Below are positions 1-64,000 of a DNA stretch of 64,000 bases, one piece after another. The DNA is from Sinohyriopsis cumingii. Taxonomy: Eukaryota; Mollusca; Bivalvia; Unionida; Unionidae. Below the pieces are notes generated by a model that made no database searches, was not told the origin of the DNA, and worked only from the letters and a program-made list of their open reading frames with translations. The stretch lies in assembly GCA_028554795.2 (NCBI GenBank), contig CM068839.1, positions 87,875,540 to 87,939,539 of the forward strand, written 5' to 3'. Position numbers and translations under genes: made by a program. Every line of letters starts with the position of its first letter. Position 1 is the first letter of the stretch.

Positions 1-258
1 TTAATTCAATTTTTAAATTCACAAAAAATGTGAGAAATACAATAAAACTCAAGAAATCTTAATTTGTTGGTATTCCGCAGCGTAACAAATGGAACGTAAC
101 GCCCAGTGTAATTTCGACAATTTAGAACAAATCTTCATATGCGACAAAAAGATTTCAAAGAAACTATATATGTAATCTTTACTGGTTCGATCTACAAGTA
201 AATAACTCCAGGATTCAGTTTATGGTGTACATTTCAAAAGGAAATGGGATGAAATTAT

Positions 259-597
259 CTCGAAGTAATTGTAAGCAAAGTGTACTAAAAGATTACATAG
301 CTCGCCTCTTTGAAGTAATTATAAACAATGTAATAAACGAGTATGTATCTCAACTATTTGATGTAATTGAAACCAGAGTATTAAAGCCGAGTAAATATCT
401 CAACTCGTTGAAGTAACTGTATAACTGTAAAAAGAGTAATAAATAAGTATATATCTCAATTCTGTGAAGTAATTGTAACCAAAATACAATGAATGATTAC
501 ATAGCTCATCTCTTCAAGGTAATTGTAACTAGTCTAATAAACTATTACATATCTCAGCTATTCCAAGCAATTGTAAACAAAATGTAATAAATAACAG
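259..597. repeat. Minisatellite, ~48-50-bp degenerate subunits (A type)
   Basis: About seven tandem subunits, each starting 'ctc' and carrying a core like 'gtaattgtaac' followed by 'aataaa' and 'tacatag/tatat'. Subunit lengths run about 42-56 bp, so the array is old and diverged within a monomer yet nearly identical between monomers. This shows that homogenisation acts on the whole monomer, not on the subunit. The short plus-strand ORF across it (222-416) is a by-product of a subunit length near a multiple of three. Confidence 0.9.
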
Positions 598-649
598 CTT
601 AGATGACATCTTCGATGCATTTAATAGTCTTCAGTTTACATAATAAAAA

Positions 650-1672
650 CTAATTATCATGCAGGTCAATGGTCTTGGTGAGTTCAATGAACATCATGTA
701 GAGTGGTTGACCTTGCTCTGTGTTCTTCTCTTGGAGCTGTCGTATGGAAAAGATCATGTCTGTCGTCGACCTGCCTGCTTTAAAGCCGCACTGGGATTCC
801 AGGTGCACACGGTCCGCCAGCAACTGCAGCCTGTTGAGTATAATGCGGGCATACACTTTGCCAACGATGCTCAGAAGCGAGATCCCTCTGTAGTTATTAC
901 AGTCACTGAGGTCGCCATTGTTTTTGTAAACGGTATCTCGCGCATATCTTGGGGGACCGCTCCTTTCCTTCCAGCAGAGACAAAGTAGCTCATGCAGCGG
1001 CTGAAGCAATGTTGGTTTCCCACGTTCTATAGCTTTGGGCGGGATGCTGTCACTACCTGGTGCTTTGTCGTTTGGGTGGGAGTCGATTGCTTTGCTGAGC
1101 TCCTCTAAGGTGGGCACTTCGTCGAGCTCATCCATGGTGGGCAGTTTTTATGCTGCTAGGGGCCGCATCGGTGACTAGCATATCCTGGGAGTATAGCTCT
1201 GAGTAGTGTTCCACCCATCTGGCCATCTGTTGCTCACAGTCAGTGATCTCCTCTCCCCTCAGAGATTTCCGGGGAACGGCCCCTTTCACCCTAGGGCCTA
1301 GAGCCTTCTTGATACCACAGTACATACCTTGGATGTTTCCGGACTCGGCAGTGTGCTGGAGTCCTTCACATAGTTGTTACCAGTACTCATTCGCGCACTG
1401 TCTAGCGATTGTGTTGGGTGTTGCTTCGAGCACTTCTGAGATCAGCAAGCGTCCGTCCATTAAGGCATTTTTTTGTAACGTTTGAAGGCTTTTCGTTTGT
1501 CTTCGATTATTGGTTCCATCCTTGATAGATGTGCGTTGAACCAGTCCTGGCTGGGCCGTTCCTTTTTGCCAAACATGGCCATGGCTGTGCTGTAGATTGC
1601 ACCCTTCATGGCGTTCCACATGGCTGTGGCATCGTGGTCTGGCAGGTCCTGGAGTGTCTGGTCCAGGGCTAG
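650..1672 (-). mobile_element. LINE ORF2 remnant, A1 type (linker + RT fingers)
   Basis: Read on the minus strand, 1672 to ~1460 encodes the linker before RT (motifs DATAMWNAMK, DWFNAHLSRMEPIIEDKRKA). A frameshift at the T run near 1470 leads into ISEVLEATPNTIARQCANEYW, which ends at an in-frame TAA near 1380. Then follow GMYCGIKKALGP and WVEHYSELYSQDM (to ~1190), and a frameshift at an A run near 1145. The RT reading frame is 650-1135, with PTLEELSKAID, DKAPGSDSIPP, NYRGISLLSIVGKVYARI, ESQCGFKAGRSTTDMIFS and motif A as FIELTKTID. It stops at LHDN just after motif A. The palm motif YxDD, thumb and endonuclease are absent. The motif-A catalytic Asp is Glu. It is a non-functional fragment; the clade is not assigned with confidence. 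The plus-strand ORFs here (659-988, 1243-1485) are antisense shadows. Confidence 0.92.
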
Positions 1673-2254
1673 TATGACAATACAAGAGTATATCACAATT
1701 CTACTAGTACAGCTCTGGGATTGTTTCAGAGACGTACGACCATTCAATCAAAATGCAATTAAACATTTTATAATTTGATTGGTATTGAATGTTCTAGTTC
1801 GAGGTTATCAAAAGCAAATTACATGAAAGAACTGCACAATTCTGCAGGTGCCACATTTTACTTATATAAACACATGTACCATGGAAAAGGAAAAAAATAG
1901 CCAAATAGATTCATATATTACCAAAACATAATGCAAATAGACTTTTTTTAAATATAAATTATTACAAAAAGTGCACGTGTAAGATTTATAAATTCTTTGA
2001 TTGATCTTTTTTATTCTGGCTGTGTCATACAGCAGTTGGATATTTAAAATCAGTTATAATCCTTATTACTGCAGCATATATACTTGTTAATTATTCTGAC
2101 CAAGCATTATGCTATGAGAATTGCATTGCATAAATGGAAATATATTGTACTGCAAACCCACTTCCTCACATCCGACCCTGTTATCTGCTCAATGAATGTA
2201 TTCTACAAGTATGCTCAGTGGCATGAATATGTGTTTTCTCTGAAATGTTTCAAA
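1673..2254. other. AT-rich spacer of A monomers, no gene seen
   Basis: About 580 bp of AT-rich sequence with poly-T and poly-A runs and no recognisable homology. The 61-codon ORF at 2084-2269 (66 codons in some A2 copies) is destroyed by a single-base change in many other copies, so I do not call it a gene. The same segment follows every A-type LINE fragment. B monomers lack it because of their internal deletion. Confidence 0.8.
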
Positions 2255-2661
2255 CTTAATGCAAAATAATGGTGAAAGACAAACGTTAATTCAAATAAAG
2301 CATCACACACATACACACGAATGCAACAAGTGTATACAGACAGGATGTCTTTCTTTGTCATACTATTTACACCGATAAATCAACAATAACTTCTTAAAAG
2401 TGTTTTATTCAATTTTTAAATTCGGAAAAATGTGAGAAATACAATAAAACTCAAGAAATATTTATTTGTTGGTATTCCGCAGCGTGACAAATGGAACGTA
2501 ACGCTCAGTGTAATTTCGACAATTTAGAACAAATGTTCATAACCGACAAAAAGATTTCAAAGAAACTATATATGTAATCTTTACTGGTTCGATCTACAAG
2601 TAAATAGCTGCAGGATTCAGCTAATGGTGTACATTTCAAAAGGGAAATGGGATGAAATTGT
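2255..2661. other. β-type left flank, no gene seen
   Basis: A ~407-bp non-coding flank present at the start of every monomer. It holds AATAAA at 2294-2299, a short CA-rich run at about 2302-2318, and diagnostic β alleles: 'gcgtgacaaatgg', 'cataaccgac' and 'tagctgcaggattcag'. The α flank of A1 and A2 (e.g. 3646-4052) has 'gcgtaacaaatgg', 'catatgcgac' and 'taactccaggattcag' at the same places. No promoter or RNA gene could be supported. Confidence 0.8.
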
Positions 2662-3000
2662 CTCGAAGTAATTGTAACCAAAGCGTACTAAAAGATTACA
2701 TAGCTCGCCTCTTTGAAGTAATTATAAACAATGTAATAAACGAGTATGTATCTCAACAATTTGATGTAATTGTAACCAGAGTACTAAAGCCGAGTAAATA
2801 TCTCAACTCGTTGAAGCAACTGTATAACTGTAACAAGAGTAATAAATGAGTATATATCTCAACTCTCTGAAGTAATTGTAACCAAAGTACAATAAATGAT
2901 TACATAGCTCATCTCTTAGAGGTAATTGTAACTAGTCTAATAAACTATTACATATCTCAGCTCTTCCAAGCAATTGTAAACAAAATGTAATAAATAACAG
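2662..3000. repeat. Minisatellite (B type)
   Basis: Subunit boundaries at 'ctc' give approximate lengths of 42, 48, 50, 56, 50, 48 and 45 bp. B alleles include 'caacaatttg' and 'gaagcaactg' where A has 'caactatttg' and 'gaagtaactg'. The last change removes a stop and makes the overlapping ORF (2652-2849) longer than in A. The total is 339 bp, the same as in A, so the minisatellite copy number was fixed before A and B split. Confidence 0.9.
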
Positions 3001-3051
3001 CTTAGATGACCTCTTCGATGCATTTAATAGTCTTCAGTTTACATAATAAAA

Positions 3052-3640
3052 CTAATTATCATGCAGGTCAAAGGTCTTGGTGAGGTCGATGAACATCATG
3101 TAGAGTGGTTGACCTTGCTCTGTGTTCTTCTCTTGGAGTTGTCGTATGGAAAATATCCTGTCTGTCGTCGACCTGCCTGCATTAAAGCCGCACTGGGATT
3201 CCAGGTGCACACTGTCCGCCAGCAACTGCAGCCTGTTGAATATAATGCGGGCATACACGTTGCCAACGATGCTCAGAAGCGAGATCAAGCGAGATCCCTC
3301 TGTAATTATTACAGTCACTGAGGTCGCCATTGTTTTTGTAAACGGTATCTCGCGCATGTCTTGGGGATCCGCTCCTTCCTCCCAGCAGAGACAAAGTAGC
3401 TCATGCAGTGGCTGAAGCAATGTTTGTTTCTCACGTTCGATAGCTTCGGGCGGGATGATGTCACTACCTGGTGCTTTGTCGTTTGGGAGGGAGTCAATTG
3501 CTTTGCTGAGCTCCTCTAAGGTGGGCACTTTGTTGAGCTCGTCCATGGTTAGCAGTTTTTATGCTGCTAGGGGCCGCATCGGTGACTGACATTTCTTGGG
3601 AGTATAGCTCTAGGTAGTGTTCCACCCATCTGGCCATCTG
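3052..3640 (-). mobile_element. LINE RT remnant, B type (early)
   Basis: The open frame at 3052-3546 looks intact but is chimeric. A 1-bp loss near 3374 shifts frame after LCLCWEEG, and a 10-bp tandem duplication ('aagcgagatc', 3277-3286 and 3287-3296) shifts it back before LLSIVGNVYARI. The conserved NYRGIS motif is therefore read out of frame between them. Motif A keeps its Asp (FIDLTKTFD), unlike A copies. There is no YxDD. The upstream linker survives only to 3640. Dead fragment. Confidence 0.92.
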
Positions 3641-3645
3641 TCATA

Positions 3646-6048
3646 CTTAATGCAAAATAATGGTGAAAGACAAACGTTAATTCAAATAAAGCATCGCACA
3701 CATACACACGAATGCAACAAGTGTATACAGACAGGATGTCTTCCGTCGTCATACTATATACACCGGCTAATCAACAATAACTACTTAAAAGTGTTTAATT
3801 CAATTTTTAAATTCACAAAAAATGTGAGAAATACAATAAAACTCAAGAAATCTTAATTTGTTGGTATTCCGCAGCGTAACAAATGGAACGTAACGCCCAG
3901 TGTAATTTCGACAATTTAGAACAAATCTTCATATGCGACAAAAAGATTTCAAAGAAACTATATATGTAATCTTTACTGGTTCGATCTACAAGTAAATAAC
4001 TCCAGGATTCAGTTTATGGTGTACATTTCAAAAGGAAATGGGATGAAATTATCTCGAAGTAATTGTAAGCAAAGTGTACTAAAAGATTACATAGCTCGCC
4101 TCTTTGAAGTAATTATAAACAATGTAATAAACGAGTATGTATCTCAACTATTTGATGTAATTGAAACCAGAGTATTAAAGCCGAGTAAATATCTCAACTC
4201 GTTGAAGTAACTGTATAACTGTAAAAAGAGTAATAAATAAGTATATATCTCAATTCTGTGAAGTAATTGTAACCAAAATACAATGAATGATTACATAGCT
4301 CATCTCTTCAAGGTAATTGTAACTAGTCTAATAAACTATTACATATCTCAGCTATTCCAAGCAATTGTAAACAAAATGTAATAAATAACAGCTTAGATGA
4401 CATCTTCGATGCATTTAATAGTCTTCAGTTTACATAATAAAAACTAATTATCATGCAGGTCAATGGTCTTGGTGAGTTCAATGAACATCATGTAGAGTGG
4501 TTGACCTTGCTCTGTGTTCTTCTCTTGGAGCTGTCGTATGGAAAAGATCATGTCTGTCGTCGACCTGCCTGCTTTAAAGCCGCACTGGGATTCCAGGTGC
4601 ACACGGTCCGCCAGCAACTGCAGCCTGTTGAGTATAATGCGGGCATACACTTTGCCAACGATGCTCAGAAGCGAGATCCCTCTGTAGTTATTACAGTCAC
4701 TGAGGTCGCCATTGTTTTTGTAAACGGTATCTCGCGCATATCTTGGGGGACCGCTCCTTTCCTTCCAGCAGAGACAAAGTAGCTCATGCAGCGGCTGAAG
4801 CAATGTTGGTTTCCCACGTTCTATAGCTTTGGGCGGGATGCTGTCACTACCTGGTGCTTTGTCGTTTGGGTGGGAGTCGATTGCTTTGCTGAGCTCCTCT
4901 AAGGTGGGCACTTCGTCGAGCTCATCCATGGTGGGCAGTTTTTATGCTGCTAGGGGCCGCATCGGTGACTAGCATATCCTGGGAGTATAGCTCTGAGTAG
5001 TGTTCCACCCATCTGGCCATCTGTTGCTCACAGTCAGTGATCTCCTCTCCCCTCAGAGATTTCCGGGGAACGGCCCCTTTCACCCTAGGGCCTAGAGCCT
5101 TCTTGATACCACAGTACATACCTTGGATGTTTCCGGACTCGGCAGTGTGCTGGAGTCCTTCACATAGTTGTTACCAGTACTCATTCGCGCACTGTCTAGC
5201 GATTGTGTTGGGTGTTGCTTCGAGCACTTCTGAGATCAGCAAGCGTCCGTCCATTAAGGCATTTTTTTGTAACGTTTGAAGGCTTTTCGTTTGTCTTCGA
5301 TTATTGGTTCCATCCTTGATAGATGTGCGTTGAACCAGTCCTGGCTGGGCCGTTCCTTTTTGCCAAACATGGCCATGGCTGTGCTGTAGATTGCACCCTT
5401 CATGGCGTTCCACATGGCTGTGGCATCGTGGTCTGGCAGGTCCTGGAGTGTCTGGTCCAGGGCTAGTATGACAATACAAGAGTATATCACAATTCTACTA
5501 GTACAGCTCTGGGATTGTTTCAGAGACGTACGACCATTCAATCAAAATGCAATTAAACATTTTATAATTTGATTGGTATTGAATGTTCTAGTTCGAGGTT
5601 ATCAAAAGCAAATTACATGAAAGAACTGCACAATTCTGCAGGTGCCACATTTTACTTATATAAACACATGTACCATGGAAAAGGAAAAAAATAGCCAAAT
5701 AGATTCATATATTACCAAAACATAATGCAAATAGACTTTTTTTAAATATAAATTATTACAAAAAGTGCACGTGTAAGATTTATAAATTCTTTGATTGATC
5801 TTTTTTATTCTGGCTGTGTCATACAGCAGTTGGATATTTAAAATCAGTTATAATCCTTATTACTGCAGCATATATACTTGTTAATTATTCTGACCAAGCA
5901 TTATGCTATGAGAATTGCATTGCATAAATGGAAATATATTGTACTGCAAACCCACTTCCTCACATCCGACCCTGTTATCTGCTCAATGAATGTATTCTAC
6001 AAGTATGCTCAGTGGCATGAATATGTGTTTTCTCTGAAATGTTTCAAA
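3646..6048. repeat. Monomer A1
   Basis: A 2403-bp complete A1 monomer with minisatellite at 4053-4391. Every frame translated across it matches the 1-2254 copy. With the following B it repeats the first HOR unit almost perfectly. Confidence 0.96.
4444..5466 (-). mobile_element. LINE ORF2 remnant, A1 type
   Basis: Same structure and translation as 650-1672, including the T-run frameshift, the TAA in the linker and the motif-A Glu. The RT frame is 4444-4929. Confidence 0.92.
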
Positions 6049-7439
6049 CTTAATGCAAAATAATGGTGAAAGACAAACGTTAATTCAAATAAAGCATCAC
6101 ACACATACACACGAATGCAACAAGTGTATACAGACAGGATGTCTTTCTTTGTCATACTATTTACACCGATAAATCAACAATAACTTCTTAAAAGTGTTTT
6201 ATTCAATTTTTAAATTCGGAAAAATGTGAGAAATACAATAAAACTCAAGAAATATTTATTTGTTGGTATTCCGCAGCGTGACAAATGGAACGTAACGCTC
6301 AGTGTAATTTCGACAATTTAGAACAAATGTTCATAACCGACAAAAAGATTTCAAAGAAACTATATATGTAATCTTTACTGGTTCGATCTACAAGTAAATA
6401 GCTGCAGGATTCAGCTAATGGTGTACATTTCAAAAGGGAAATGGGATGAAATTGTCTCGAAGTAATTGTAACCAAAGCGTACTAAAAGGTTACATAGCTC
6501 GCCTCTTTGAAGTAATTATAAACAATGTAATAAACGAGTATGTATCTCAACAATTTGATGTAATTGTAACCAGAGTACTAAAGCCGAGTAAATATCTCAA
6601 CTCGTTGAAGCAACTGTATAACTGTAACAAGAGTAATAAATGAGTATATATCTCAACTCTCTGAAGTAATTGTAACCAAAGTACAATAAATGATTACATA
6701 GCTCATCTCTTAGAGGTAATTGTAACTAGTCTAATAAACTATTACATATCTCAGCTCTTCCAAGCAATTGTAAACAAAATGTAATAAATAACAGCTTAGA
6801 TGACCTCTTCGATGCATTTAATAGTCTTCAGTTTACATAATAAAACTAATTATCATGCAGGTCAAAGGTCTTGGTGAGGTCGATGAACATCATGTAGAGT
6901 GGTTGACCTTGCTCTGTGTTCTTCTCTTGGAGTTGTCGTATGGAAAATATCCTGTCTGTCGTCGACCTGCCTGCATTAAAGCCGCACTGGGATTCCAGGT
7001 GCACACTGTCCGCCAGCAACTGCAGCCTGTTGAATATAATGCGGGCATACACGTTGCCAACGATGCTCAGAAGCGAGATCAAGCGAGATCCCTCTGTAAT
7101 TATTACAGTCACTGAGGTCGCCATTGTTTTTGTAAACGGTATCTCGCGCATGTCTTGGGGATCCGCTCCTTCCTCCCAGCAGAGACAAAGTAGCTCATGC
7201 AGTGGCTGAAGCAATGTTTGTTTCTCACGTTCGATAGCTTCGGGCGGGATGATGTCACTACCTGGTGCTTTGTCGTTTGGGAGGGAGTCAATTGCTTTGC
7301 TGAGCTCCTCTAAGGTGGGCACTTTGTTGAGCTCGTCCATGGTTAGCAGTTTTTATGCTGCTAGGGGCCGCATCGGTGACTGACATTTCTTGGGAGTATA
7401 GCTCTAGGTAGTGTTCCACCCATCTGGCCATCTGTCATA
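6049..7439. repeat. Monomer B (early subtype)
   Basis: 1391 bp, minisatellite at 6456-6794. I found one difference from the B at 2255-3645: g at 6489 instead of a at 2695. Confidence 0.96.
6846..7434 (-). mobile_element. LINE RT remnant, B type (early)
   Basis: The translation is identical to 3052-3640, with both frame-shifting scars. The frame is 6846-7340. Confidence 0.92.
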
Positions 7440-7847
7440 CTTAATGCAAAATAATGGTGAAAGACAAACGTTAATTCAAATAAAGCATCGCACACATACA
7501 CACGAATGCAACAAGTGTATACAGACAGGATGTCTTCCGTCGTCATACTATATACACCGGCTAATCAACAATAACTACTTAAAAGTGTTTAATTCAATTT
7601 TTAAATTCACAAAAAATGTGAGAAATACAATAAAACTCAAGAAATCTTTATTTGTTGGTATTCCGCAGCGTAACAAATGGAACGTAACGCCCAGTGTAAT
7701 TTCGACAATTTAGAACAAATCTTCATATGCGACAAAAAGATTTCAAAGAAACTATATATGTAATCTTTACTGGTTCGATCTACAAGTAAATAACTCCAGG
7801 ATTCAGTTTATGGTGTACATTTCAAAAGGGAAATGGGATGAAATTAT

Positions 7848-8186
7848 CTCGAAGTAATTGTAAGCAAAGTGTACTAAAAGATTACATAGCTCGCCTCTTT
7901 GAAGTAATTATAAACAATGTAATAAACGAGTATGTATCTCAACTATTTGATGTAATTGAAACCAGAGTATTAAAGCCGAGTAAATATCTCAACTCGTTGA
8001 AGTAACTGTATAACTGTAAAAAGAGTAATAAATAAGTATATATCTCAATTCTCTGAAGTAATTGTAACCAAAATACAATAAATGATTACATAGCTCATCT
8101 CTTCAAGGTAATTGTAACTAGTCTAATAAACTATTACATATCTCAGCTCTTCCAAGCAATTGTTAACAAAATGTAATAAATAACAG
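7848..8186. repeat. Minisatellite (A2)
   Basis: 339 bp, seven subunits. It carries A alleles plus 'caattgttaac' in the last subunit, a marker shared by A2 copies but absent from A1 and B. Confidence 0.9.
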
Positions 8187-8238
8187 CTTAGATGACCTCT
8201 TCGATGCATTTAATAGTCTTCAGTTTACATAATAAAAA

Positions 8239-9236
8239 CTAATTATCATGCAGGTCAATGGTCTTGGTGAGTTCAATGAACATCATGTAGAGTGGTTGAC
8301 CTTGCTCTGTGTTCTTCTCTTGGAGTTGTCGTATGGAAAAGATCATGTCTGTCGTCGACCTGCCTGCTTTAAAGCCGCACTGGGATTCCAGGTGCACATG
8401 GTCCACCAGCAACTGCAGCCTGTTGAGTATAATGCGGGAATACACTTTGCCAACGATGCTCAGAAGCGAGATCCCTCTGTAATTATTACAGTTACTGAGG
8501 TCGCCATTGTTTTTGTAAACGGTATCTCGCGCATATCTTGGAGGACCGCTCCTTTCCTCCCAGCAGAGACAAAGTAGCTCATGCAGCAGCTGAAGCAATG
8601 TTGGTTTCCCACGTTCGATAGCTTTGGGCGGGATGCTGTCACTACATTGTGCTTTGTCGTTTGGGGCGGAGTCGATTGCTTTGTTGAGCTCCTCTAAGGT
8701 GGGCACTTTGTCGAGCTCCTCTATGGTGGGCAGTTTTTATGCTGCTAGGGCTGCATCGGTGACTGACATTTCTTGGGAGCATAGCTCTGAGTAGTGTTCC
8801 ACCCATCTGGCCATCTGTTGCTCGCAGTCAGTGATCTCCTCTCCCGTCAGAGATTTCTGGCGGACGATCCCTTTCACCATAGGGCCTAGAGCCTTCTTGA
8901 TATCACAGTACATACCTTGGATGTTTCCGGATTCGGCACTGCGCTGGAGTCTTTCACATAGTTGTTACCAGTACTCGTTCGCGCACTGTCTAGCGATGTG
9001 TTGGGTGTTGCTTCGAGCGCTTCTGAGATCAGCAAGCATCCGTTCATTAGGGCATTTTTTGTAAGCTTTGAAGGCTTTTCATTTGTCTTCGATTATTGGT
9101 TCTATCCTTGATAGATGTGCGCTGAACTAGTGCCAAACGTGGCCATGGCTGTGCTGTAGATGACACCCTTCATGGCGCTCCACATGACTGTGGCATCGTG
9201 ATGTGGCAGGTCTTGGAGTGCCTGGTCCAGGGCTAG
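8239..9236 (-). mobile_element. LINE ORF2 remnant, A2 type
   Basis: The RT frame is 8239-8706 (155 codons from PTLEELNKAID). A2-specific damage: the ATG before DELD is lost, a 1-bp deletion near 8751 rejoins linker and RT frames but creates TAA between them, two 1-bp losses lie in the linker (near 8998 and 9058), and the 22-bp deletion removes the KKERPSQDW segment. Motif A reads FIELTKTID. Private changes: LVDH for LADR, and NDKAQCSD. Confidence 0.92.
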
Positions 9237-9838
9237 TATGAGAATACAAGAGTATATCACAATTATGCTCATGCAGCTCTGAGATTTTTTCAGAGACGTA
9301 CGAAAATTCAATCAAAATCCAATTAAACATTTTATAATATCATTTGTATTAAATGTTCTAATCCGAGGTTATTAAAAGCTTATTACATGAATAAACTGCA
9401 CAATTTTGCAGGTGCCACATTTTACTTAAATAAAAACAGACACCATGAAAGAGGAAAAATCAGCCAAATATATTCATATATTACCAAAACATAATGCAAA
9501 TAGACTTTTTTTATATAAATTATTACAAAAAGTGCACATGTAAGATTTATAAATTCTTTGGTTGATCTTTTTTATTCTGGCTGTGTGATACAGGAAATGT
9601 TTTTTAAACTAAACAGGCATTGGATATTGAAAATCAATTATAATCCTTATTATTGCAGCATATATACTTGTCAATTATTCTGGCCAAGCATTATGCTATA
9701 AGAATTGCATTGCATAAATGGAAATATATTGTACTGCAAACCCACTTCCTCACATCCGATCCTGTTATCTGTTCACTGAATGTATTCTACAAGTATCCTC
9801 AATGGCATGAATATCGGTTTTCTTTGACATGTTTCAAA
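9237..9838. other. AT-rich spacer of A2, no gene seen
   Basis: A2 version of the spacer, with the extra ~20 bp near 9606-9623. No coding or RNA signal could be supported. Confidence 0.75.
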
Positions 9839-10247
9839 CTTAATGCAAAATAACGGTGAAAGACAACCGTTAATTCAAATAAAGCATCACACACATACAC
9901 ACGAATGCAACAAGTGTATACAGACATGATGTCTTCCTTCGTCATACTATATACACCGGCTGATCAACAATAACTACTTAAAAGTGTTTTATTCAATTGT
10001 TAAATTTGGAAAAACATTTGAGAAATACAATAAAACCCAAGAAATTTGTATTTGTTGGTATTCCACAGCGTGACAAATGGAACGTAATTCCCAGTGTAAT
10101 TTCGACAATTTAGAATAAATCTTCATAACCAACAAAAAGATTTCAAAGAAACTATATATGTAATCTTTACTGGTTCGATCTACAAGTAAATAGCTGCAGG
10201 ATTCAGTTAATGGTGTACATTTCAAAAGGGAAATGGGATGAAAATGT

Positions 10248-10586
10248 CTCGAAGTAATTGCAACCAAAGTGTACTAAAAGATCACATAGCTCGCCTCTTT
10301 GAAGTAATTATAAACAATGTAATAAACAAGTACGTATCTCAACTATTTGATGTCATTGAAACCAGAGTACTAAAGCCGAGTAAATATCTCAACTCGGTGA
10401 AGTAACTGTATAACTGTAACAAGAGTAATAAATGAGTATATATCTCAACTCTATGAAGTAATTGTAACCAAAGTACAATAAATGATTACATAGCTCATCT
10501 CTTCAAGGTAATAGTAACTAGTCTAATAAACTATTACATATCTCAGCTCTTCCAAGCAATTGTAAACAAAATGTAATAAATAACAG
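10248..10586. repeat. Minisatellite (A1')
   Basis: 339 bp with private variants: 'gtaattgcaacc', 'gatcacatag', 'acaagtacgtatc' and 'gtaatagtaac'. It mixes A ('caactatttg') and B ('gtaacaagag') alleles. Confidence 0.9.
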
Positions 10587-10638
10587 CTTAGATCACCTCT
10601 ACGATGCATTTAATAGTCTTCAATTTACATAATAAAAA

Positions 10639-11661
10639 CTAATTATCATGCAGGTCAAAGGTCTTGGTGATTTCGATGAACATCATGTAGAGTGGTTGAC
10701 CTTGCTCTGTGTTCTTCTCTTGGAGTTGTCGTATGGAAAAAATCCTGTCTGTCGTCGACCTGCCTGCTTTAAAGCCGCACTGGGATTCCAGGTGCACACG
10801 GTCCGCCAGCAACTGCAGCCTGTTGAGTATAATGTGGGCATACACTTTGCCAACGATGCTCAGAAGCGAGATCCCTCTGTAGTTATTACAGTCACTGAGG
10901 TCGCCATTGTTTTTGTAAACGGTATCTCGCGCATATCTTGGGGGACCGCTCCTTTCCTTCCAGCAGAGACAAAGTAGCTCATGCAGCGGCTGAAGCAATG
11001 TTGGTTTCCCACGTTCTATAGCTTTGGGCGGGATGCTGTCACTACCTGGTGCTTTGTCGTTTGGGTGGGAGTCGATTGCTTTGCTGAGCTCCTCTAAGGT
11101 GGGCACTTTGTCGAGCTCATCCATGGTGGGCAGTTTTTATGCTGCTAGGGGCCGCATCGGTGACTAGCATATCCTGGGAGTATAGCTCTGAGTAGTGTTC
11201 CACCCATCTGGCCATCTGTTGCTCACAGTCAGTGATCTCCTCTCCCCTCAGAGATTTCCGGGGAACGGCCCCTTTCACCGTAGGGCCTAGAGCCTTCTTG
11301 ATACCACAGTACATACCTTGGATGTTTCCGGACTCGGCAGTGTGCTGGAGTCCTTCACATAGTTGTTACCAGTACTCGTTCGCGCACTGTCTAGTGATTG
11401 TGTTGGGTGTTGCTTCGAGCACTTCTGAGATCAACAAGCGTCCGTCCATTAAGGCATTTTTTTGTAACGTTTGAAGGCTTTTCGTTTGTCTTCGATTATT
11501 GGTTCCATCCTTGATAGATGTGCGTTGAACCAGTCCTGGCTGGGCCGTTCCTTTTTGCCAAACATGGCCATGGCTGTGCTGTAGATTGCACCCTTCATGG
11601 CGTTCCACATGGCTGTGGCATCGTGGTCTGGCAGGTCCTGGAGTGTCTGGTCCATGGCTAG
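10639..11661 (-). mobile_element. LINE ORF2 remnant, A1' (A/B intermediate)
   Basis: The RT frame is 10639-11124. The 3' end of RT mixes types: 'caaaggtc' and TKTFD as in B, but FIE as in A (FIEITKTFD). The rest follows A1, with intact KKERPSQDW, the linker TAA, the T-run frameshift, and neither the B 1-bp loss nor the B 10-bp duplication. MDELDKV matches later B copies. Confidence 0.92.
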
Positions 11662-53930: not shown

Positions 53931-55320
53931 CTTAATGCAAAATAATGGTGAAAGACAAACGTTAATTCAAATAAAGCATCACACACATACACACGAATGC
54001 AACAAGTGTATACAGACAGGATGTCTTTCTTTGTCATACTATTTACACCGATAAATCAACAATAACTACTTGAAAGTGTTTTATTCAATTTTTAAATTCG
54101 GAAAAATGTTAGAAATACAATAAAACTCAAGAAATATTTATTTGTTGGTATTCCGCAGCGTGACAAATGGAACGTAACGCTCAGTGTAATTTCGACAATT
54201 TAGAACAAATGTTCATAACCGACAAAAAGATTTCAAAGAAACTATATATGTAATCTTTACTGGTTCGATCTACAAGTAAATAGCTGCAGGATTCAGCTAA
54301 TGGTGTACATTTCAAAAGGGAAATGGGATGAAATTGTCTCGAAGTAATTGTAACCAAAGCGTACTAAAAGATTACATAGCTCGCCTCTTTGAAGTAATTA
54401 TAAACAATGTAATAAACGAGTATGTATCTCAACAATTTGATGTAATTGTAACCAGAGTACTAAAGCCGAGTAAATATCTCAACTCGTTGAAGCAACTGTA
54501 TAACTGTAACAAGAGTAATAAATGAGTATATATCTCAACTCTCTGAAGTAATTGTAACCAAAGTACAATAAATGATTACATAGCTCATCTCTTAGAGGTA
54601 ATTGTAACTAGTCTAATAAACTATTACATATCTCAGCTCTTCCAAGCAATTGTAAACAAAATGTAATAAATAACAGCTTAGATGACCTCTTCGATGCATT
54701 TAATAGTCTTCAGTTTACATAATAAAACTAATTATCATGCAGGTCAAAGGTCTTGGTGAGGTCGATGAACATCATGTAGAGTGGTTGACCTTGCTCTGTG
54801 TTCTTCTCTTGGAGTTGTCGTATGGAAAATACCCTGTCTGTCGTCGACCTGCCTGCATTAAAGCCGCACTGGGATTCCAGGTGCACACTGTCCGCCAGCA
54901 ACTGCAGCCTGTTGAATATAATGCGGGCATACACGTTGCCAACGATGCTCAGAAGCGAGATCAAGCGAGATCCCTCTGTAATTATTACAGTCACTGAGGT
55001 CGCCATTGTTTTTGTAAACGGTATCTCGCGCATGTCTTGGGGTCCGCTCCTTCCTCCCAGCAGAGACAAAGTAGCTCATGCAGTGGCTGAAGGAATGTTT
55101 GTTTCCCACGTTCGATAGCTTCGGGCGGGATGATGTCACTACCTGGTGCTTTGTCGTTTGGGAGGGAGTCGATTGCTTTGCTGAGCTCCTCTAAGGTGGG
55201 CACTTTGTCGAGCTCATCCATGGTGGGCAGTTTTTATGCTGCTAGGGGCCGCATCGGTGACTGACATTTCTTGGGAGTATAGCTCTAGGTAGTGTTCCAC
55301 CCATCTGGCCATCTGTCATA
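53931..55320. repeat. Monomer B (superunit copy 2)
   Basis: Minisatellite at 54338-54676. It repeats 'atgttagaaat' and 'gaaaataccctg', with 'gtatacggac' just downstream, as at 46354. Confidence 0.95.
54728..55315 (-). mobile_element. LINE RT remnant, B type (late)
   Basis: Split frames 54728-55069 and 54991-55221, with TDRVFS as in the 47151 copy. Confidence 0.92.
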
Positions 55321-57720
55321 CTTAATGCAAAATAATGGTGAAAGACAAACGTTAATTCAAATAAAGCATCGCACACATACACACGAATGCAACAAGTGTA
55401 TACGGACATGATGTCTTCCGTCGTCATACTATATACACCGGCTAATCAACAATAACTACTTAAAAGTGTTTAATTCAATTTTTAAATTCACAAAAAATGT
55501 GAGAAATACAATAAAACTCAAGAAATCTTTATTTGTTGGTATTCCGCAGCGTAACAAATGGAACGTAACGCCCAGTGTAATTTCGACAATTTAGAACAAA
55601 TCTTCATATGCGACAAAAAGATTTCAAAGAAACTATATATGTAATCTTTACTGGTTCGATCTACAAGTAAATAACTCCAGGATTCAGTTTATGGTGTACA
55701 TTTCAAAAGGGAAATGGGATGAAATTATCTCGAAGTAATTGTAAGCAAAGTGTACTAAAAGATTACATAGCTCGCCTCTTTGAAGTAATTATAAACAATG
55801 TAATAAACGAGTATGTATCTCAACTATTTGATGTAATTGAAACCAGAGTATTAAAGCCGAGTAAATATCTCAACTCGTTGAAGTAACTGTATAACTGTAA
55901 AAAGAGTAATAAATAAGTATATATCTCAATTCTCTGAAGTAATTGTAACCAAAATACAATAAATGATTACATAGCTCATCTCTTCAAGGTAATTGTAACT
56001 AGTCTAATAAACTATTACATATCTCAGCTCTTCCAAGCAATTGTTAACAAAATGTAATAAATAACAGCTTAGATGACCTCTTCGATGCATTTAATAGTCT
56101 TCAGTTTACATAATAAAAACTAATTATCATGCAGGTCAATGGTCTTGGTGAGTTCAATGAACATCATGTAGAGTGGTTGACCTTGCTCTGTGTTCTTCTC
56201 TTGGAGTTGTCGTATGGAAAAGATCATGTCTGTCGTCGACCTGCCTGCTTTAAAGCCGCACTGGGATTCCAGGTGCACACGGTCCGCCAGCAACTGCAGC
56301 CTGTTGAGTATAATGCGAGAATACACTTTGCCAACGATGCTCAGAAGCGAGATCCCTCTGTAATTATTACAGTCACTGAGGTCGCCATTGTTTTTGTAAA
56401 CGGTATCTCGCGCATATCTTGGAGGACCGCTCCTTTCCTCCCAGCAGAGACAAAGTAGCTCATGCAGCAGCTGAAGCAATGTTGGTTTCCTACGTTCGAT
56501 AGCTTTGGGCGGGATGCTGTCACTACATTGTGCTTTGTCGTTTGGGGCGGAGTCGATTGCTTTGTTGAGCTCCTCTAAGGTGGGCACTTTGTGGAGCTCC
56601 TCTATGGTGGGCAGTTTTTATGCTGCTAGGGCTGCATCGGTGACTGACATTTCTTGGGAGCATAGCTCTGAGTAGTGTTCCACCCATCTGGCCATCTGCT
56701 GCTCGCAGTCAGTGATCTCCTCTCCCGTCAGAGATTTCTGGCGGACGATCCCTTTCACCATAGGGCCTAGAGCCTTCTTGATATCACAGTACATACCTTG
56801 GATGTTTCCGGATTCGGCACTGCGCTGGAGTCCTTCACATAGTTGTTACCAGTACTCGTTCGCGCACTGTCTAGCGATGTGTTGGGTGTTGCTTCGTGCG
56901 CTTCTGAGATCAGCAAGCATCCGTTCATTAGGGCATTTTTTGTAAGCTTTGAAGGCTTTTCATTTGTCTTCGATTATTGGTTCTATCCTTGATAGATGTG
57001 CGCTGAACTAGTGCCAAACGTGGCCATGGCTGTGCTGTAGATGACACCCTTCATGGCGCTCCACATGGCTGTGGCATCGTGATCTGGCAGGTCTTGGAGT
57101 GCCTGGTCCAGGGCTAGTATGAGAATACAAGAGTATATCACAATTATGCTCATGCAGCTCTGAGATTTTTTCACAGACGTACGAAAATTCAATCAAAATC
57201 CAATTAAACATTTTATAATTTCATTTGTATTAAATGTTCTAATTCGAGGTTATTAAAAGCTTATTACATGAATAAACTGCACAATTTTGCAGGTGCCACA
57301 TTTTACTTAAATAAAAACAGACACCATGAAAAAGGAAAAATCAGCCAAATATATTCATATATTACCAAAACATAATGCAAATAGACTTTTTTTTATATAA
57401 ATTATTACAAAAAGTGCACATGTAAGATTTATAAATTCTTTGGTTGATCTTTTTTATTCTGGCTGTGTCATACAGGAAATGTTTTTTAAACTCAACAGGC
57501 ATTGGATATTGAAAATCAATTATAATCCTTATTATTGCAGCATATATACTTGTCAATTATTCTGGCCAAGCATTATGCTATAAGAATTGCATTGCATAAA
57601 TGGAAATATATTGTACTGCAAACCCACTTCCTCACATCCGACCCTGTTATCTGTTCAATGAATGTATTCTACAAGTATCCTCAATGGCATGAATATGTGT
57701 TTTCTCTGAAATGTTTCAAA
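55321..57720. repeat. Monomer A2 (superunit copy 2, second A)
   Basis: 2400 bp, minisatellite at 55729-56067. It repeats 'catctgctgctcgc' and 'ttttttcacagacg' of 47744-50143, but has 'ctgttcaatg' and private 'aaactcaacagg' near 57489. Confidence 0.95.
56120..57117 (-). mobile_element. LINE ORF2 remnant, A2 type
   Basis: RT frame 56120-56587. SAPNDKAQCSD as in the 48543 copy, with private IERRKPT and A1-like DLSDCNN. Confidence 0.92.
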
Positions 57721-59110
57721 CTTAATGCAAAATAATGGTGAAAGACAAACGTTAATTCAAATAAAGCATCACACACATACACACGAATGCAACAAGTGTA
57801 TACAGACAGGATGTCTTTCTTTGTCATACTATTTACACCGATAAATCAACAATAACTACTTGAAAGTGTTTTATTCAATTTTTAAATTCGGAAAAATGTG
57901 AGAAATACAATAAAACTCAAGAAATATTTATTTGTTGGTATTCCGCAGCGTGACAAATGGAACGTAACGCTCAGTGTAATTTCGACAATTTAGAACAAAT
58001 GTTCATAACCGACAAAAAGATTTCAAAGAAACTATATATGTAATCTTTACTGGTTCGATCTACAAGTAAATAGCTGCAGGATTCAGCTAATGGTGTACAT
58101 TTCAAAAGGGAAATGGGATGAAATTGTCTCGAAGTAATTGTAACCAAAGCGTACTAAAAGATTACATAGCTCGCCTCTTTGAAGTAATTATAAACAATGT
58201 AATAAACGAGTATGTATCTCAACAATTTGATGTAATTGTAACCAGAGTACTAAAGCCGAGTAAATATCTCAACTCGTTGAAGCAACTGTATAACTGTAAC
58301 AAGAGTAATAAATGAGTATATATCTCAACTCTCTGAAGTAATTGTAACCAAAGTACAATAAATGATTACATAGCTCATCTCTTAGAGGTAATTGTAACTA
58401 GTCTAATAAACTATTACATATCTCAGCTCTTCCAAGCAATTGTAAACAAAATGTAATAAATAACAGCTTAGATGACCTCTTCGATGCATTTAATAGTCTT
58501 CAGTTTACATAATAAAACTAATTATCATGCAGGTCAAAGGTCTTGGTGAGGTCGATGAACATCATGTAGAGTGGTTGACCTTGCTCTGTGTTCTTCTCTT
58601 GGAGTTGTCGTATGGAAAATATCCTGTCTGTCGTCGACCTGCCTGCATTAAAGCCGCACTGGGATTCCAGGTGCACACTGTCCGCCAGCAACTGCAGCCT
58701 GTTGAATATAATGCGGGCATACACGTTGCCAACGATGCTCAGAAGCGAGATCAAGCGAGATCCCTCTGTAATTATTACAGTCACTGAGGTCGCCATTGTT
58801 TTTGTAAACGGTATCTCGCGCATGTCTTGGGGTCCGCTCCTTCCTCCCAGCAGAGACAAAGTAGCTCATGCAGTGGCTGAAGGAATGTTTGTTTCCCACG
58901 TTCGATAGCTTCGGGCGGGATGATGTCACTACCTGGTGCTTTGTCGTTTGGGAGGGAGTCGATTGCTTTGCTGAGCTCCTCTAAGGTGGGCACTTTGTCG
59001 AGCTCATCCATGGTGGGCAGTTTTTATGCTGCTAGGGGCCGCATCGGTGACTGACATTTCTTGGGAGTATAGCTCTAGGTAGTGTTCCACCCATCTGGCC
59101 ATCTGTCATA
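57721..59110. repeat. Monomer B (late)
   Basis: Minisatellite at 58128-58466. Consensus late B; closes the second superunit. Confidence 0.95.
58518..59105 (-). mobile_element. LINE RT remnant, B type (late)
   Basis: Split frames 58518-58859 and 58781-59011, late-B consensus. Confidence 0.92.
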
Positions 59111-61507
59111 CTTAATGCAAAATAATGGTGAAAGACAAACGTTAATTCAAATAAAGCATCGCACACATACACACGAATGCAACAAGTGTATACAGACATG
59201 ATGTCTTCCGTCGTCATACTATATACACCGGCTAATCAACAATAACTACTTAAAAGTGTTTAATTCAATTTTTAAATTCACAAAAATGTGAGAAATACAA
59301 TAAAACTCAAGAAATCTTTATTTGTTGGTATTCCGCAGCGTAACAAATGGAACGTAACGCCCAGTGTAATTTCGACAATTTAGAACAAATCTTCATATGC
59401 GACAAAAAGATTTCAAAGAAACTATATATGTAATCTTTACTGGTTCGATCTACAAGTAAATAACTCCAGGATTCAGTTTATGGTGTACATTTCAAAAGGG
59501 AAATGGGATGAAATTATCTCGAAGTAATTGTAAGCAAAGTGTACTAAAAGATTACATAGCTCGCCTCTTTGAAGTAATTATAAACAATGTAATAAACGAG
59601 TATGTATCTCAACTATTTGATGTAATTGAAACCAGAGTATTAAAGCCGAGTAAATATCTCAACTCGTTGAAGTAACTGTATAACTGTAAAAAGAGTAATA
59701 AATAAGTATATATCTCAATTCTCTGAAGTAATTGTAACCAAAATACAATAAATGATTACATAGCTCATCTCTTCAAGGTAATTGTAACTAGTCTAATAAA
59801 CTATTACATATCTCAGCTCTTCCAAGCAATTGTTAACAAAATGTAATAAATAACAGCTTAGATGACCTCTTCGATGCATTTAATAGTCTTCAGTTTACAT
59901 AATAAAAACTAATTATCATGCAGGTCAATGGTCTTGGTGAGTTCAATGAACATCATGTAGAGTGGTTGACCTTGCTCTGTGTTCTTCTCTTGGAGTTGTC
60001 GTATGGAAAAGATCATGTCTGTCGTCGACCTGCCTGCTTTAAAGCCGCACTGGGATTCCAGGTGCACACGGTCCGCCAGCAACTGCAGCCTGTTGAGTAT
60101 AATGCGAGAAAACACTTTGCCAACGATGCTCAGAAGCGAGATCCCTCTGTAATTATTACAGTTACTGAGGTCGCCATTGTTTTTGTAAACGGTATCTCGC
60201 GCATATCTTGGAGGACCGCTCCTTTCCTCCCAGCAGAGACAAAGTAGCTCATGCAGCAGCTGAAGCAATGTTGGTTTCCCACGTTCGATAGCTTTGGGCG
60301 GGATGCTGTCACTACATGGTGCTTTGTCGTTTGGGACGGAGTCGATTGCTTTGTTGAGCTCCTCTAAGGTGGGCACTTTGTGGAGCTCCTCTATGGTGGG
60401 CAGTTTTTATGCTGTTAGGGCTGCATCGGTGACTGACATTTCTTGGGAGCATAGCTCTGAGTAGTGTTCCACCCATCTGGCCATCTGTTGCTCGCAGTCA
60501 GTGATCTCCTCTCCCGTCAGAGATTTCTGGCGGACGATCCCTTTCACCATAGGGCCTAGAGCCTTCTTGATATCACAGTACATACCTTGGATGTTTCCGG
60601 ATTCGGCACTGCGCTGGAGTCCTTCACATAGTTGTTACCAGTACTCGTTCGCGCACTGTCTAGCGATGTGTTGGGTGTTGCTTCGAGCACTTCTGAGATC
60701 AGCAAGCGTCCGTTCATTAGGGCATTTTTTGTAAGCTTTGAAGGCTTTTCATTTGTCTTCGATTATTGGTTCTATCCTTGATAGATGTGCGCTGAACTAG
60801 TGCCAAACGTGGCCATGGCTGTGCTGTAGATGACACCCTTCATGGCGCTCCACATGGCTGTGGCATCGTGATCTGGCAGGTCTTGGAGTGCCTGGTCCAG
60901 GGCTAGTATGAGAATACAAGAGTATATCACAATTATGCTCATGCAGCTCTGAGATTTTTTCACAGACGTACGAAAATTCAATCAAAATCCAATTAAACAT
61001 TTTATAATTTCATTTGTATTAAATGTTCTAATTCGAGGTTATTAAAAGCTTATTACATGAATAAACTGCACAATTTTGCAGGTGCCACATTTTACTTAAA
61101 TAAAAACAGACACCATGAAAAAGGAAAAATCAGCCAAATATATTCATATATTACCAAAACATAATGCAAATAGACTTTTTTATATAAATTATTACAAAAA
61201 GTGCACATGTAAGATTTATAAATTCTTTGGTTGATCTTTTTTATTCTGGCTGTATCATACAGGAAATGTTTTTTAAACTAAACAGGCATTGGATATTGAA
61301 AATCAATTATAATCCTTATTATTGCAGCATATATACTTGTCAATTATTCTGGCCAAGCATTATGCTATAAGAATTGCATTGCATAAATGGAAATATATTG
61401 TACTGCAAACCCACTTCCTCACATCCGACCCTGTTATCTGTTCAATGAATGTATTCTACAAGTATCCTCAATGGCATGAATATGTGTTTTCTCTGAAATG
61501 TTTCAAA
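59111..61507. repeat. Monomer A2, chimeric
   Basis: 2397 bp, minisatellite at 59518-59856. The left part carries first-A superunit markers ('gagaaaacac', 'tgctgttaggg', A1 patch). The right part carries the second-A marker 'ttttttcacagacg' (near 60960) and lacks 'aaaacgtgcac'. Confidence 0.95.
59909..60906 (-). mobile_element. LINE ORF2 remnant, A2 type with A1-like patch
   Basis: RT frame 59909-60376, KVFSRI as in the 52332 copy. The inferred exchange point lies near or just beyond the 5' end of this fragment. Confidence 0.92.
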
Positions 61508-62897
61508 CTTAATGCAAAATAATGGTGAAAGACAAACGTTAATTCAAATAAAGCATCACACACATACACACGAATGCAACAAGTGTATACAGACAGGATG
61601 TCTTTCTTTGTCATACTATTTACACCGATAAATCAACAATAACTACTTGAAAGTGTTTTATTCAATTTTTAAATTCGGAAAAATGTGAGAAATACAATAA
61701 AACTCAAGAAATATTTATTTGTTGGTATTCCGCAGCGTGACAAATGGAACGTAACGCTCAGTGTAATTTCGACAATTTAGAACAAATGTTCATAACCGAC
61801 AAAAAGATTTCAAAGAAACTATATATGTAATCTTTACTGGTTCGATCTACAAGTAAATAGCTGCAGGATTCAGCTAATGGTGTACATTTCAAAAGGGAAA
61901 TGGGATGAAATTGTCTCGAAGTAATTGTAACCAAAGCGTACTAAAAGATCACATAGCTCGCCTCTTTGAAGTAATTATAAACAATGTAATAAACGAGTAT
62001 GTATCTCAACAATTTGATGTAATTGTAACCAGAGTACTAAAGCCGAGTAAATATCTCAACTCGTTGAAGCAACTGTATAACTGTAACAAGAGTAATAAAT
62101 GAGTATATATCTCAACTCTCTGAAGTAATTGTAACCAAAGTACAATAAATGATTACATAGCTCATCTCTTAGAGGTAATTGTAACTAGTCTAATAAACTA
62201 TTACATATCTCAGCTCTTCCAAGCAATTGTAAACAAAATGTAATAAATAACAGCTTAGATGACCTCTTCGATGCATTTAATAGTCTTCAGTTTACATAAT
62301 AAAACTAATTATCATGCAGGTCAAAGGTCTTGGTGAGGTCGATGAACATCATGTAGAGTGGTTGACCTTGCTCTGTGTTCTTCTCTTGGAGTTGTCGTAT
62401 GGAAAATATCCTGTCTGTCGTCGACCTGCCTGCATTAAAGCCGCACTGGGATTCCAGGTGCACACTGTCCGCCAGCAACTGCAGCCTGTTGAATATAATG
62501 CGGGCATACACGTTGCCAACGATGCTCAGAAGCGAGATCAAGCGAGATCCCTCTGTAATTATTACAGTCACTGAGGTCGCCATTGTTTTTGTAAACGGTA
62601 TCTCGCGCATGTCTTGGGGTCCGCTCCTTCCTCCCAGCAGAGACAAAGTAGCTCATGCAGTGGCTGAAGGAATGTTTGTTTCCCACGTTCGATAGCTTCG
62701 GGCGGGATGATGTCACTACCTGGTGCTTTGTCGTTTGGGAGGGAGTCGATTGCTTTGCTGAGCTCCTCTAAGGTGGGCACTTTGTCGAGCTCATCCATGG
62801 TGGGCAGTTTTTATGCTGCTAGGGGCCGCATCGGTGACTGACATTTCTTGGGAGTATAGCTCTAGGTAGTGTTCCACCCATCTGGCCATCTGTCATA
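61508..62897. repeat. Monomer B (late)
   Basis: Minisatellite at 61915-62253 with 'gatcacatag' near 61950, a change otherwise seen only in A1' (10248-10586). Confidence 0.95.
62305..62892 (-). mobile_element. LINE RT remnant, B type (late)
   Basis: Split frames 62305-62646 and 62568-62798, late-B consensus. Confidence 0.92.
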
Positions 62898-63305
62898 CTT
62901 AATGCAAAATAATGGTGAAAGACAAACGTTAATTCAAATAAAGCATCGCACACATACACACGAATGCAACAAGTGTATACAGACATGATGTCTTCCGTCG
63001 TCATACTATATACACCGGCTAATCAACAATAACTACTTAAAAGTGTTTAATTCAATTTTTAAATTCACAAAAAATGTGAGAAATACAATAAAACTCAAGA
63101 AATCTTTATTTGTTGGTATTCCGCAGCGTAACAAATGGAACGTAACGCCCAGTGTAATTTCGACAATTTAGAACAAATCTTCATATGCGACAAAAAGATT
63201 TCAAAGAAACTATATATGTAATCTTTACTGGTTCGATCTACAAGTAAATAACTCCAGGATTCAGTTTATGGTGTACATTTCAAAAGGGAAATGGGATGAA
63301 ATTAT

Positions 63306-63643
63306 CTCGAAGTAATTGTAAGCAAAGTGTACTAAAAGATTACATAGCTCCCTCTTTGAAGTAATTATAAACAATGTAATAAACGAGCATGTATCTCAAC
63401 TATTTGATGTAATTGAAACCAGAGTATTAAAGCCTAGTAAATATCTCAACTCGTTGAAGTAACTGTATAACTGTAAAAAGAGTAATAAATAAGTATATAT
63501 CTCAATTCTCTGAAGTAATTGTAACCAAAATACAATAAATGATTACATAGCTCATCTCTTCAAGGTAATTGTAACTAGTCTAATAAACTATTACATATCT
63601 CAGCTCTTCCAAGCAATTGTTAACAAAATGTAATAAATAACAG
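63306..63643. repeat. Minisatellite (A2, with 1-bp deletion)
   Basis: 338 bp. 'agctccctcttt' lacks one base present as 'agctcgcctcttt' elsewhere, so the overlapping plus-strand ORF is broken. 'gagcatgtat' and 'agcctagtaa' are also private. Confidence 0.88.
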
Positions 63644-63695
63644 CTTAGATGACCTCTTCGATGCATTTAATAGTCTTCAGTTTACATAATAAAAA

Positions 63696-64000
63696 CTAAT
63701 TATCATGCAGGTCAATGGTCTTGGTGAGTTCAATGAACATCATGTAGAGTGGTTGACCTTGCTCTGTGTTCTTCTCTTGGAGTTTTCGTATGGAAAAGAT
63801 CATGTCTGTCGTCGACCTGCCTGCTTTAAAGCCGCACTGGGATTCCAGGTGCACACGGTCCGCCAGCAACTGCAGCCTGTTGAGTATAATGCGAGAATAC
63901 ACTTTGCCAACGATGCTCAGAAGCGAGATCCCTCTGTAATTATTACAGTTACTGAGGTCGCCATTGTTTTTGTAAACGGTATCTCGCGCATATCTTGGAG
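63696..64000 (-). mobile_element. LINE RT remnant, A2 type, cut by window end
   Basis: Only the motif-A end of the fragment is in the window (FIELTKTID to SNCNN-region DNA). Private SIRKLQEK for SIRQLQEK from the change at 63785. Confidence 0.88.

What the first reader, a model, noticed from the sequence alone, without database searches (positions are those of the whole stretch)
1..64000. Satellite HOR built from a LINE fragment plus a minisatellite
The sequence shows a ~3.79-kb head-to-tail repeat whose two monomers (A ~2.40 kb, B ~1.39 kb) alternate as in centromeric higher-order repeats. Each monomer contains its own ~48-bp minisatellite and an RT-fingers fragment of a non-LTR element. Three nested scales of tandem repetition (48 bp, monomer, dimer) are visible. 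The monomer is far longer than typical centromeric satellites. I know of no described satellite with this composition, but I could not search.
Basis: partly seen in the sequence, partly recalled or inferred. Interest (0 to 1): 0.75.

Follow-up and report, generated by a model that had tools for sequence, protein, structure and literature searches.

The report
LINE-born satellite array in freshwater mussel
This is a large block of repeated non-coding DNA on one chromosome of a freshwater mussel that appears to have grown from a piece of a dead jumping gene plus its neighbouring DNA; such satellites are a known kind, but here the probable birthplace and several of the crossovers that shaped the block can still be read.

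Summary
The whole window is one head-to-tail satellite: 17 complete A (2.40 kb) and 16 complete B (1.39 kb) monomers, order ABABAAB(AB)13. It lies at C16:87.88-87.94 Mb of a 2.9-Gb Unionida mussel genome, inside a ~1.01-Mb array. Genome-wide ~1,394 A and ~915 B, about 4.6 Mb; every listed place is on C16 or on five small contigs, but listings are capped. The LINE piece is a 1.0-kb internal antisense fragment (83%) of an abundant family with open 1,092-aa frames. At the array's left end the LINE runs on past the satellite breakpoint to its 3' end: the probable seed, though sequence identity alone supports this only modestly. B is A minus ~1 kb. The ancestral HOR seems to be a trimer A1-A2-B (6.2 kb). 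Mechanism: local tandem duplication, deletion, repeated unequal exchange. No coding. Centromere role untested. New member of a known kind.

The parts
1..64000 (+). satellite array; window lies wholly inside it (partial units at 1-650 and 63,697-64,000)
   Evidence: genome place C16:87,875,540-87,939,539
651..8239 (+). two AB dimers of fusion type III (A2 whose first three diagnostic sites are A1)
8240..14434 (+). one A1-A2-B trimer (6,195 bp) left in the window
14435..63696 (+). 13 AB dimers (3.79 kb) of fusion type I, A-A divergence 0-0.71%
16830..18220 (+). reference B monomer (1,391 bp)
16841..17417 (-). LINE reverse-transcriptase fragment in B, antisense, 85.4% to L039
17407..17439 (+). 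B deletion junction (RT piece joined to AT-rich segment; ~1.0 kb of A missing)
17832..18183 (+). degenerate 48-56 bp minisatellite, 7 units, in B
18221..20618 (+). reference A monomer (2,398 bp), A1/A2 fusion type I
18232..19214 (-). LINE fragment in A (linker plus RT fingers), antisense, 83.4% to L039 1138-2154; frames broken
19215..19815 (+). AT-rich segment (28.5% GC) next to the LINE 5' break; probable original flank
19784..19797 (+). A1-to-A2 crossover interval in the type I A monomer
19816..20230 (+). AT-rich segment shared by A and B (31% GC)
20231..20582 (+). degenerate 48-56 bp minisatellite, 7 units, in A

Best explanation
A non-coding satellite seeded by one LINE insertion on C16. 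A LINE lay in AT-rich DNA (antisense to the array; its 5' part absent from the unit). A 2.4-kb segment, starting inside the LINE RT region and running through the LINE 5' break, AT-rich flank and an old 48-bp minisatellite, was duplicated in tandem and became monomer A. One A lost ~1.0 kb and became B. An A1-A2-B trimer then spread as a higher-order repeat. Unequal exchange between A1 and A2 shortened it to AB dimers, with three different breakpoints seen; each dimer type spread locally, and one fills most of this window. Shown: the anatomy, a LINE continuing at the left end past the breakpoint, the B deletion, the A1/A2 breakpoints, divergent A units at the left edge. Inferred: that the left-end LINE is the seed, the order of events, LINE 5' truncation at insertion, unequal exchange (not slippage or circle re-insertion) as the agent, and that the array persists as silent heterochromatin without a product.
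For: Left end at C16:87,225,099 (L032): a LINE 3' tail (ATCATCATCAT at 1,667) leads through 1,859-1,991 and 1,991-2,164, which match L039 3300-3164 and 2261-2089, so this LINE crosses the satellite breakpoint (L039 2154) by 107 bp, same orientation. It shares with the four satellite copies aligned a G that 0 of 17 dispersed LINE copies have and a T that 1 of 17 has. The two edge A units typed are 5-8% from the main types; HOR blocks lie further in. A1 vs A2: 194 diagnostic columns; of 22 fusion-cluster A's 20 switch at 19,784-19,797 and 2 at 19,601-19,611; 4 A2-like A's switch at 18,256-18,386; 0 of 500 shuffles reach the split in any of these 26. Trimer, dimer and pentamer spacings among the 100 listed exact B sites. 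AT-rich segments: 1,481 first-look candidates against 1,394 A units, so no sign of a dispersed family.
Against: The seed claim is the weakest step: over the 66 bp that can be compared the left-end LINE differs from satellite copies at 4-7 sites and from 17 dispersed LINE copies at 6-11, so the ranges overlap; its first unit carries a deletion, and no target-site duplication was found (no shared word of 8 bases or more). The edge is not purely A: one exact B junction is listed at 87,243,246. Type III rests on three diagnostic sites; type I A's also carry 6-7 scattered A2-like sites left of the breakpoint; one A1-like unit (L034) shows a split the other way. The right end (88,239,082) and the left end of the second C16 array (82,783,707) are 100-N gaps, so only one true boundary is known and scaffolding may have misplaced an array. 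Only 85 of ~2,300 units were typed.
Confidence: 0.78

Rival explanations
1. The array is the functional (CENP-A binding) centromere of chromosome C16, and its HOR structure is kept by centromere-linked processes.
For: Megabase size, homogeneous HOR core, divergent units at the one true edge, apparently chromosome-restricted: 40 of 40 exact copies of one type I 31-mer lie on C16 (32) and contigs C34, C352, C371, C429. At 83-88 Mb of a 100-Mb chromosome a subterminal centromere is possible.
Against: No CENP-A, Hi-C or FISH data. No CENP-B-like box beyond one one-mismatch site per B. Nothing is known here of the other chromosomes' centromeres. The same stretch of C16 holds another kb-scale tandem array from a dispersed element, so it may simply be repeat-rich heterochromatin.
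Confidence: 0.25
2. A composite mobile element carrying a LINE piece and a minisatellite (Helitron- or MITE-like) was tandemised.
For: Bivalve satellites tied to Helitron-type elements are described (PMC12628747, passages).
Against: No terminal inverted repeats in the A unit, only four weak distant arms (Helitrons have none, so this speaks against MITEs only); AT-rich segments not seen dispersed (1,481 first-look candidates vs 1,394 A units); the dispersed part is the LINE (10,621 candidates); the left end shows a LINE running on.
Confidence: 0.06
3. The array, or its alternation, is an assembly artefact.
For: Array ends at N gaps; array copies on several small contigs.
Against: Distinct HOR blocks with different fusion breakpoints and local variants within one contig are not what collapse or a looped path would give.
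Confidence: 0.04
4. Amplification went through extrachromosomal circles or rolling-circle replication and re-insertion, rather than unequal crossing-over.
For: Long runs of near-identical dimers (A-A 0-0.71%) appear abruptly after the trimer.
Against: All listed C16 places are in one orientation and HOR types are local, which fits local exchange; nothing here excludes circles for single bursts.
Confidence: 0.15

Closest known systems
LINE ORF2-related satellites: PROsat (Phodopus), Pvc20 (Phoca), HinfI/SCR1 (chicken CR1)
   Same: Tandem satellite that contains a piece of a LINE second ORF (PMC9659126, passages and table rows seen).
   Different: Here the LINE piece is ~40% of a 2.4-kb unit together with AT-rich flank and a minisatellite, a multi-type HOR exists, and the probable seed LINE is at the array end. 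Whether the listed ones have such features was not checked.
Common cetacean satellite (L1 3'-terminal)
   Same: LINE-related satellite; kb-scale unit is recalled, not from a call.
   Different: It resembles the L1 3' end; here the LINE 3' end was left outside the unit.
Alpha satellite HOR arrays of primates
   Same: HOR units, homogeneous core, divergent units at the edge, new HORs from old by unequal exchange (recalled; related papers seen in a listing only).
   Different: Unit is 1.4-2.4 kb instead of 171 bp, apparently one chromosome, centromere role unknown.
TE-related satellites of oysters and clams (Helitron/MITE/pearl)
   Same: Bivalve satellites born from mobile elements (passages; abstracts).
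   Different: Those seen are tied to Helitron- or MITE-type elements; this is a LINE fragment in a megabase block.

Membership tests
Satellite DNA | long head-to-tail array of near-identical non-coding units | tested here: met
   longest frame 165 aa in 16,001-24,000
Higher-order repeat satellite | corresponding monomers of different multimers more alike than monomers within one multimer | tested here: met
   A-A 0-0.71% among the 13 type I units, B-B 0-1.44% among 16; A vs B 4.3-5.6% and A1 vs A2 4.3-7.5% by segment
LINE-derived satellite | unit contains a piece of an identifiable LINE that is dispersed elsewhere | tested here: met
   83.4% over 1,018 columns to L039; EN and RT domains in L039; 150 candidates scored, on C1-C19 and small contigs
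LINE-derived satellite | seed insertion recognisable, with target-site duplication | tested here: inconclusive
   LINE crosses the breakpoint at the left end, but no TSD and overlapping distances
Named LINE clade (RTE-like or other) | RT phylogeny | not tested
   only Pfam RVT_1/Exo_endo_phos; no reference set on hand
Centromeric satellite | CENP-A occupancy or primary constriction | not testable with these tools
   no chromatin, Hi-C or FISH data
MITE-like composite element | terminal inverted repeats and dispersed copies | tested here: not met
Helitron-type composite element | dispersed single copies with common ends | tested here: inconclusive
   first-look candidates 1,481 vs 1,394 A units, 40 of them scored and all in C16, C352, C371; Helitron ends not searched
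Host: order Unionida | M-type mtDNA with 3'-elongated cox2 beside an F-type mtDNA | tested here: met
   C1106 COX2 frame 410 aa, C807 F-type; elongated cox2 in M mtDNA of all DUI freshwater mussels (PMC5431520, passages). Family and species not tested

The most novel reading that the evidence does not exclude
The C16 array is a young, chromosome-specific centromere whose DNA grew in place from one LINE insertion, with the founding insertion still at its edge: a birth-to-HOR record of an animal centromere built on kb-long units.
Probability: 0.2. Interest if true: 0.65.

Novelty: new member of a known kind. Interest (0 to 1): 0.42.

Why it matters
How satellites start and how higher-order repeats form is mostly inferred from homogenised arrays. 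Here one genome keeps a probable seed LINE, divergent edge units, an A1-A2-B trimer and three kinds of A1/A2 fusion with mapped breakpoints, in units long enough (2.4 kb, 194 marker columns) to read exchanges directly. That makes the unequal-exchange model testable by comparison with other mussels and individuals. It is not a new class of sequence.

Tried and rejected
Rfam at gathering scores (no hit) and tRNA/SINE heads (none in 16,801-24,500): rejected. Terminal inverted repeats: only four weak distant arms. CENP-B box: 16 one-mismatch hits in the window, but all are one site repeated once per B, so the shuffle control (mean 3.2) does not apply; rejected as evidence. Target-site duplication of the seed LINE: none. 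LINE clade: not tested. Print searches for this satellite or a unionid satellite of this make-up: (listings read); none of the listed titles or abstract starts describes it, but most subscription journals are missing from the library. A first cut of the minisatellite units failed in A and was repeated with a corrected split. Limits of the localisation: the genome search lists at most 100 places or scores 40-150 candidates. Full listing was obtained for one exact 31-mer only (40 of 40 places). Listing order suggests no exact B junction on C1-C15, but one search left out exact C16 copies that one search shows, so order is not safe evidence.
Full report
CHECK. The window is one satellite array from end to end. 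Distances between identical 16-mers peak at 3,790 (18,194 pairs) with multiples. An anchor at the LINE edge occurs 34 times, giving 33 complete units: 17 A of 2,395-2,402 nt and 16 B of 1,391-1,394 nt, order ABABAAB followed by 13 AB. 30% of sampled 14-mers recur exactly 3,790 bases on, none at +3,000, none after shuffling. Tandem Repeats Finder sees the ~48-bp minisatellite and a 27-bp pair inside the RT piece. The minisatellite has 7 units of 48-56 bp; paralogous units are 69% alike (21 pairs in one A, 21 in one B), while the same position in that A and B is 93-100% alike. So the minisatellite is older than the array and travels with it.

WHERE. The window is C16:87,875,540-87,939,539 of a 2.905-Gb assembly of 1,138 contigs; C16 is 100.19 Mb. 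The assembly holds two mtDNAs: C807 (two COX1 15,961 bases apart) and C1106, whose COX2 frame is 410 aa with a long C-terminal addition. A 3'-elongated cox2 in the M mtDNA marks freshwater mussels with doubly uniparental inheritance (PMC5431520, passages), so the source is a mussel of the order Unionida, probably male; family and species were not tested. The 11 contigs among C1-C19 whose length was seen are 72-193 Mb; contigs above C19 are taken as unplaced. Sampling C16 shows array from 87,225,099 to an N gap at 88,239,082, about 1.01 Mb, and a second array from an N gap at 82,783,707 to at least 83.173 Mb. Of 20 stretches of 10 kb taken on C16, 11 hold the array, 1 (L013) only a LINE copy, 8 nothing of it.

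HOW MUCH. An A-specific 31-mer (up to 3 mismatches) occurs 1,394 times (1,094 + 300) and the B junction 915 times (713 + 202); the backwards-read controls gave 0. At 2.40 and 1.39 kb this is about 4.6 Mb, 0.16% of the assembly, a lower bound. All 40 exact places of one 31-mer variant lie on C16 (32) and contigs C34 (3), C352 (3), C371 (1), C429 (1); C308 also carries the array. No copy was seen on another chromosome in the listings, but only the last is complete.

THE LINE. A dispersed copy on C12 (L039, 3.3 kb) has an open frame of 1,033 aa as far as fetched (1,092 aa) with Exo_endo_phos and RVT_1 domains, the latter over model 5-205. The family has 10,621 first-look candidates; 150 were scored, on C1-C19 and small contigs, many with open 1,092-aa frames. 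The satellite holds only L039 1138-2154, antisense, 83.4% identical over 1,018 columns in A and 85.4% over 590 in B; its frames are broken. The clade of the LINE was not tested.

BIRTHPLACE. At the left end of the array (L032) a LINE in the same orientation starts with an ATCATCATCAT tail at 1,667, shows its C-terminal region, an internal deletion, and then L039 2261-2089, that is 107 bp beyond the satellite's LINE breakpoint and 66 bp within it, before a deletion leads into the AT-rich segment and the first minisatellite. In those 66 bp it shares with the four satellite copies aligned a G absent from all 17 dispersed copies aligned and a T present in 1 of 17; a third shared base is in 2 of 17. 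The simplest reading is that the tandem unit was cut out of this LINE and its 5'-side flank, and that the minisatellite-to-RT join in each unit is the duplication join. Against: counted over all 66 bp the left-end LINE differs from four satellite copies at 4, 5, 6 and 7 sites and from the 17 dispersed copies at 6-11, so the ranges overlap, and no target-site duplication was found. The case rests on position and collinearity more than on identity.

HISTORY. 85 complete units (44 A, 41 B) were taken from the window and 19 loci. A's fall into seven clusters: A1 (6 units, first A of AAB), A2 (12), a fusion cluster (22) and four singletons, two of them left-edge units 5-8% from the large clusters. 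On 194 columns where A1 and A2 differ, the fusion A's are A1 on the left (with 6-7 scattered A2-like sites) and A2 on the right. Of 22, 20 switch between 19,784 and 19,797 (window equivalents) and 2 (L016, a 3.735-kb dimer block) between 19,601 and 19,611. Four A2-like A's (two at the start of this window, two in L021) carry three A1 sites up to 18,256 and then A2. None of 500 shuffles reached the observed split for any of these 26 units; one A1-like unit of the other array (L034) shows a split the other way, and three A1-like units tested show none. B is 4.3-5.6% from A1 and A2. Spacing of the 100 listed exact B sites shows mainly AAB in the 82.8-83.2 Mb array (32 of 47 steps), and AB (27) and AAB (16) of 51 steps in 87.24-87.53 Mb, including an alternating AAB/AB (pentamer) stretch at 87.40-87.45 Mb; B sites with mismatches are not in that list. 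Near the left edge A units prevail, with one exact B junction listed at 87,243,246. In the window itself: two type III dimers, one A1-A2-B trimer at 8,240-14,434, thirteen type I dimers.

WHAT IT DOES. Nothing suggests a product: broken frames, no Rfam hit, no tRNA in the stretch scanned. The most likely working is passive: an array kept alike and resized by unequal exchange, probably as heterochromatin. A centromere role for C16 is possible and untested.

COMPARISON. A review lists LINE ORF2-related satellites in hamster, seal and chicken and an L1-related one in cetaceans (PMC9659126, passages); another describes bivalve loci with satellites and Helitron parts (PMC12628747, passages); retrotransposon-derived arrays that expand at primary constrictions are known in Lathyrus (PMC7004042, abstract and outline). 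This satellite belongs to that kind. What is unusual is the kb-scale HOR with several mapped exchanges, and a probable seed at its edge. The listings of searches show no description of it.

Noticed in passing
L009 (C16:86,000,001-86,010,000): A second kb-scale tandem array, period 2,119 bp, not matching the finding's segments; a 31-mer of it occurs 1,651 times (922 + 729, up to 3 mismatches), and the 100 places listed are mostly isolated sites on C1-C4, so a dispersed element seems to have been tandemised here too.
   Followed up: partly
C807 and C1106 (L029-L031): Both F-type and M-type mtDNA contigs are in the assembly, so the animal is probably male; C807 holds two copies of COX1 15,961 bases apart, probably an assembly doubling of the circle.
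   Followed up: partly
L026, L027, L014, L011 on C16: Short-period tandem repeats (59, 53, 29 and 32/64 bp) in stretches on either side of the array.
   Followed up: no
L010, L012, L028: A 4-6 kb repeat shared at 89-93% identity between three C16 stretches; not identified.
   Followed up: no
window 18,660-18,717 and equivalents: A 27-bp tandem pair inside the RT fragment of the units, present already in the LINE copy L039.
   Followed up: partly
L028 1-4181: 4,181 N at C16:89.0 Mb, unlike the 100-N gaps elsewhere; gap or withheld stretch.
   Followed up: no
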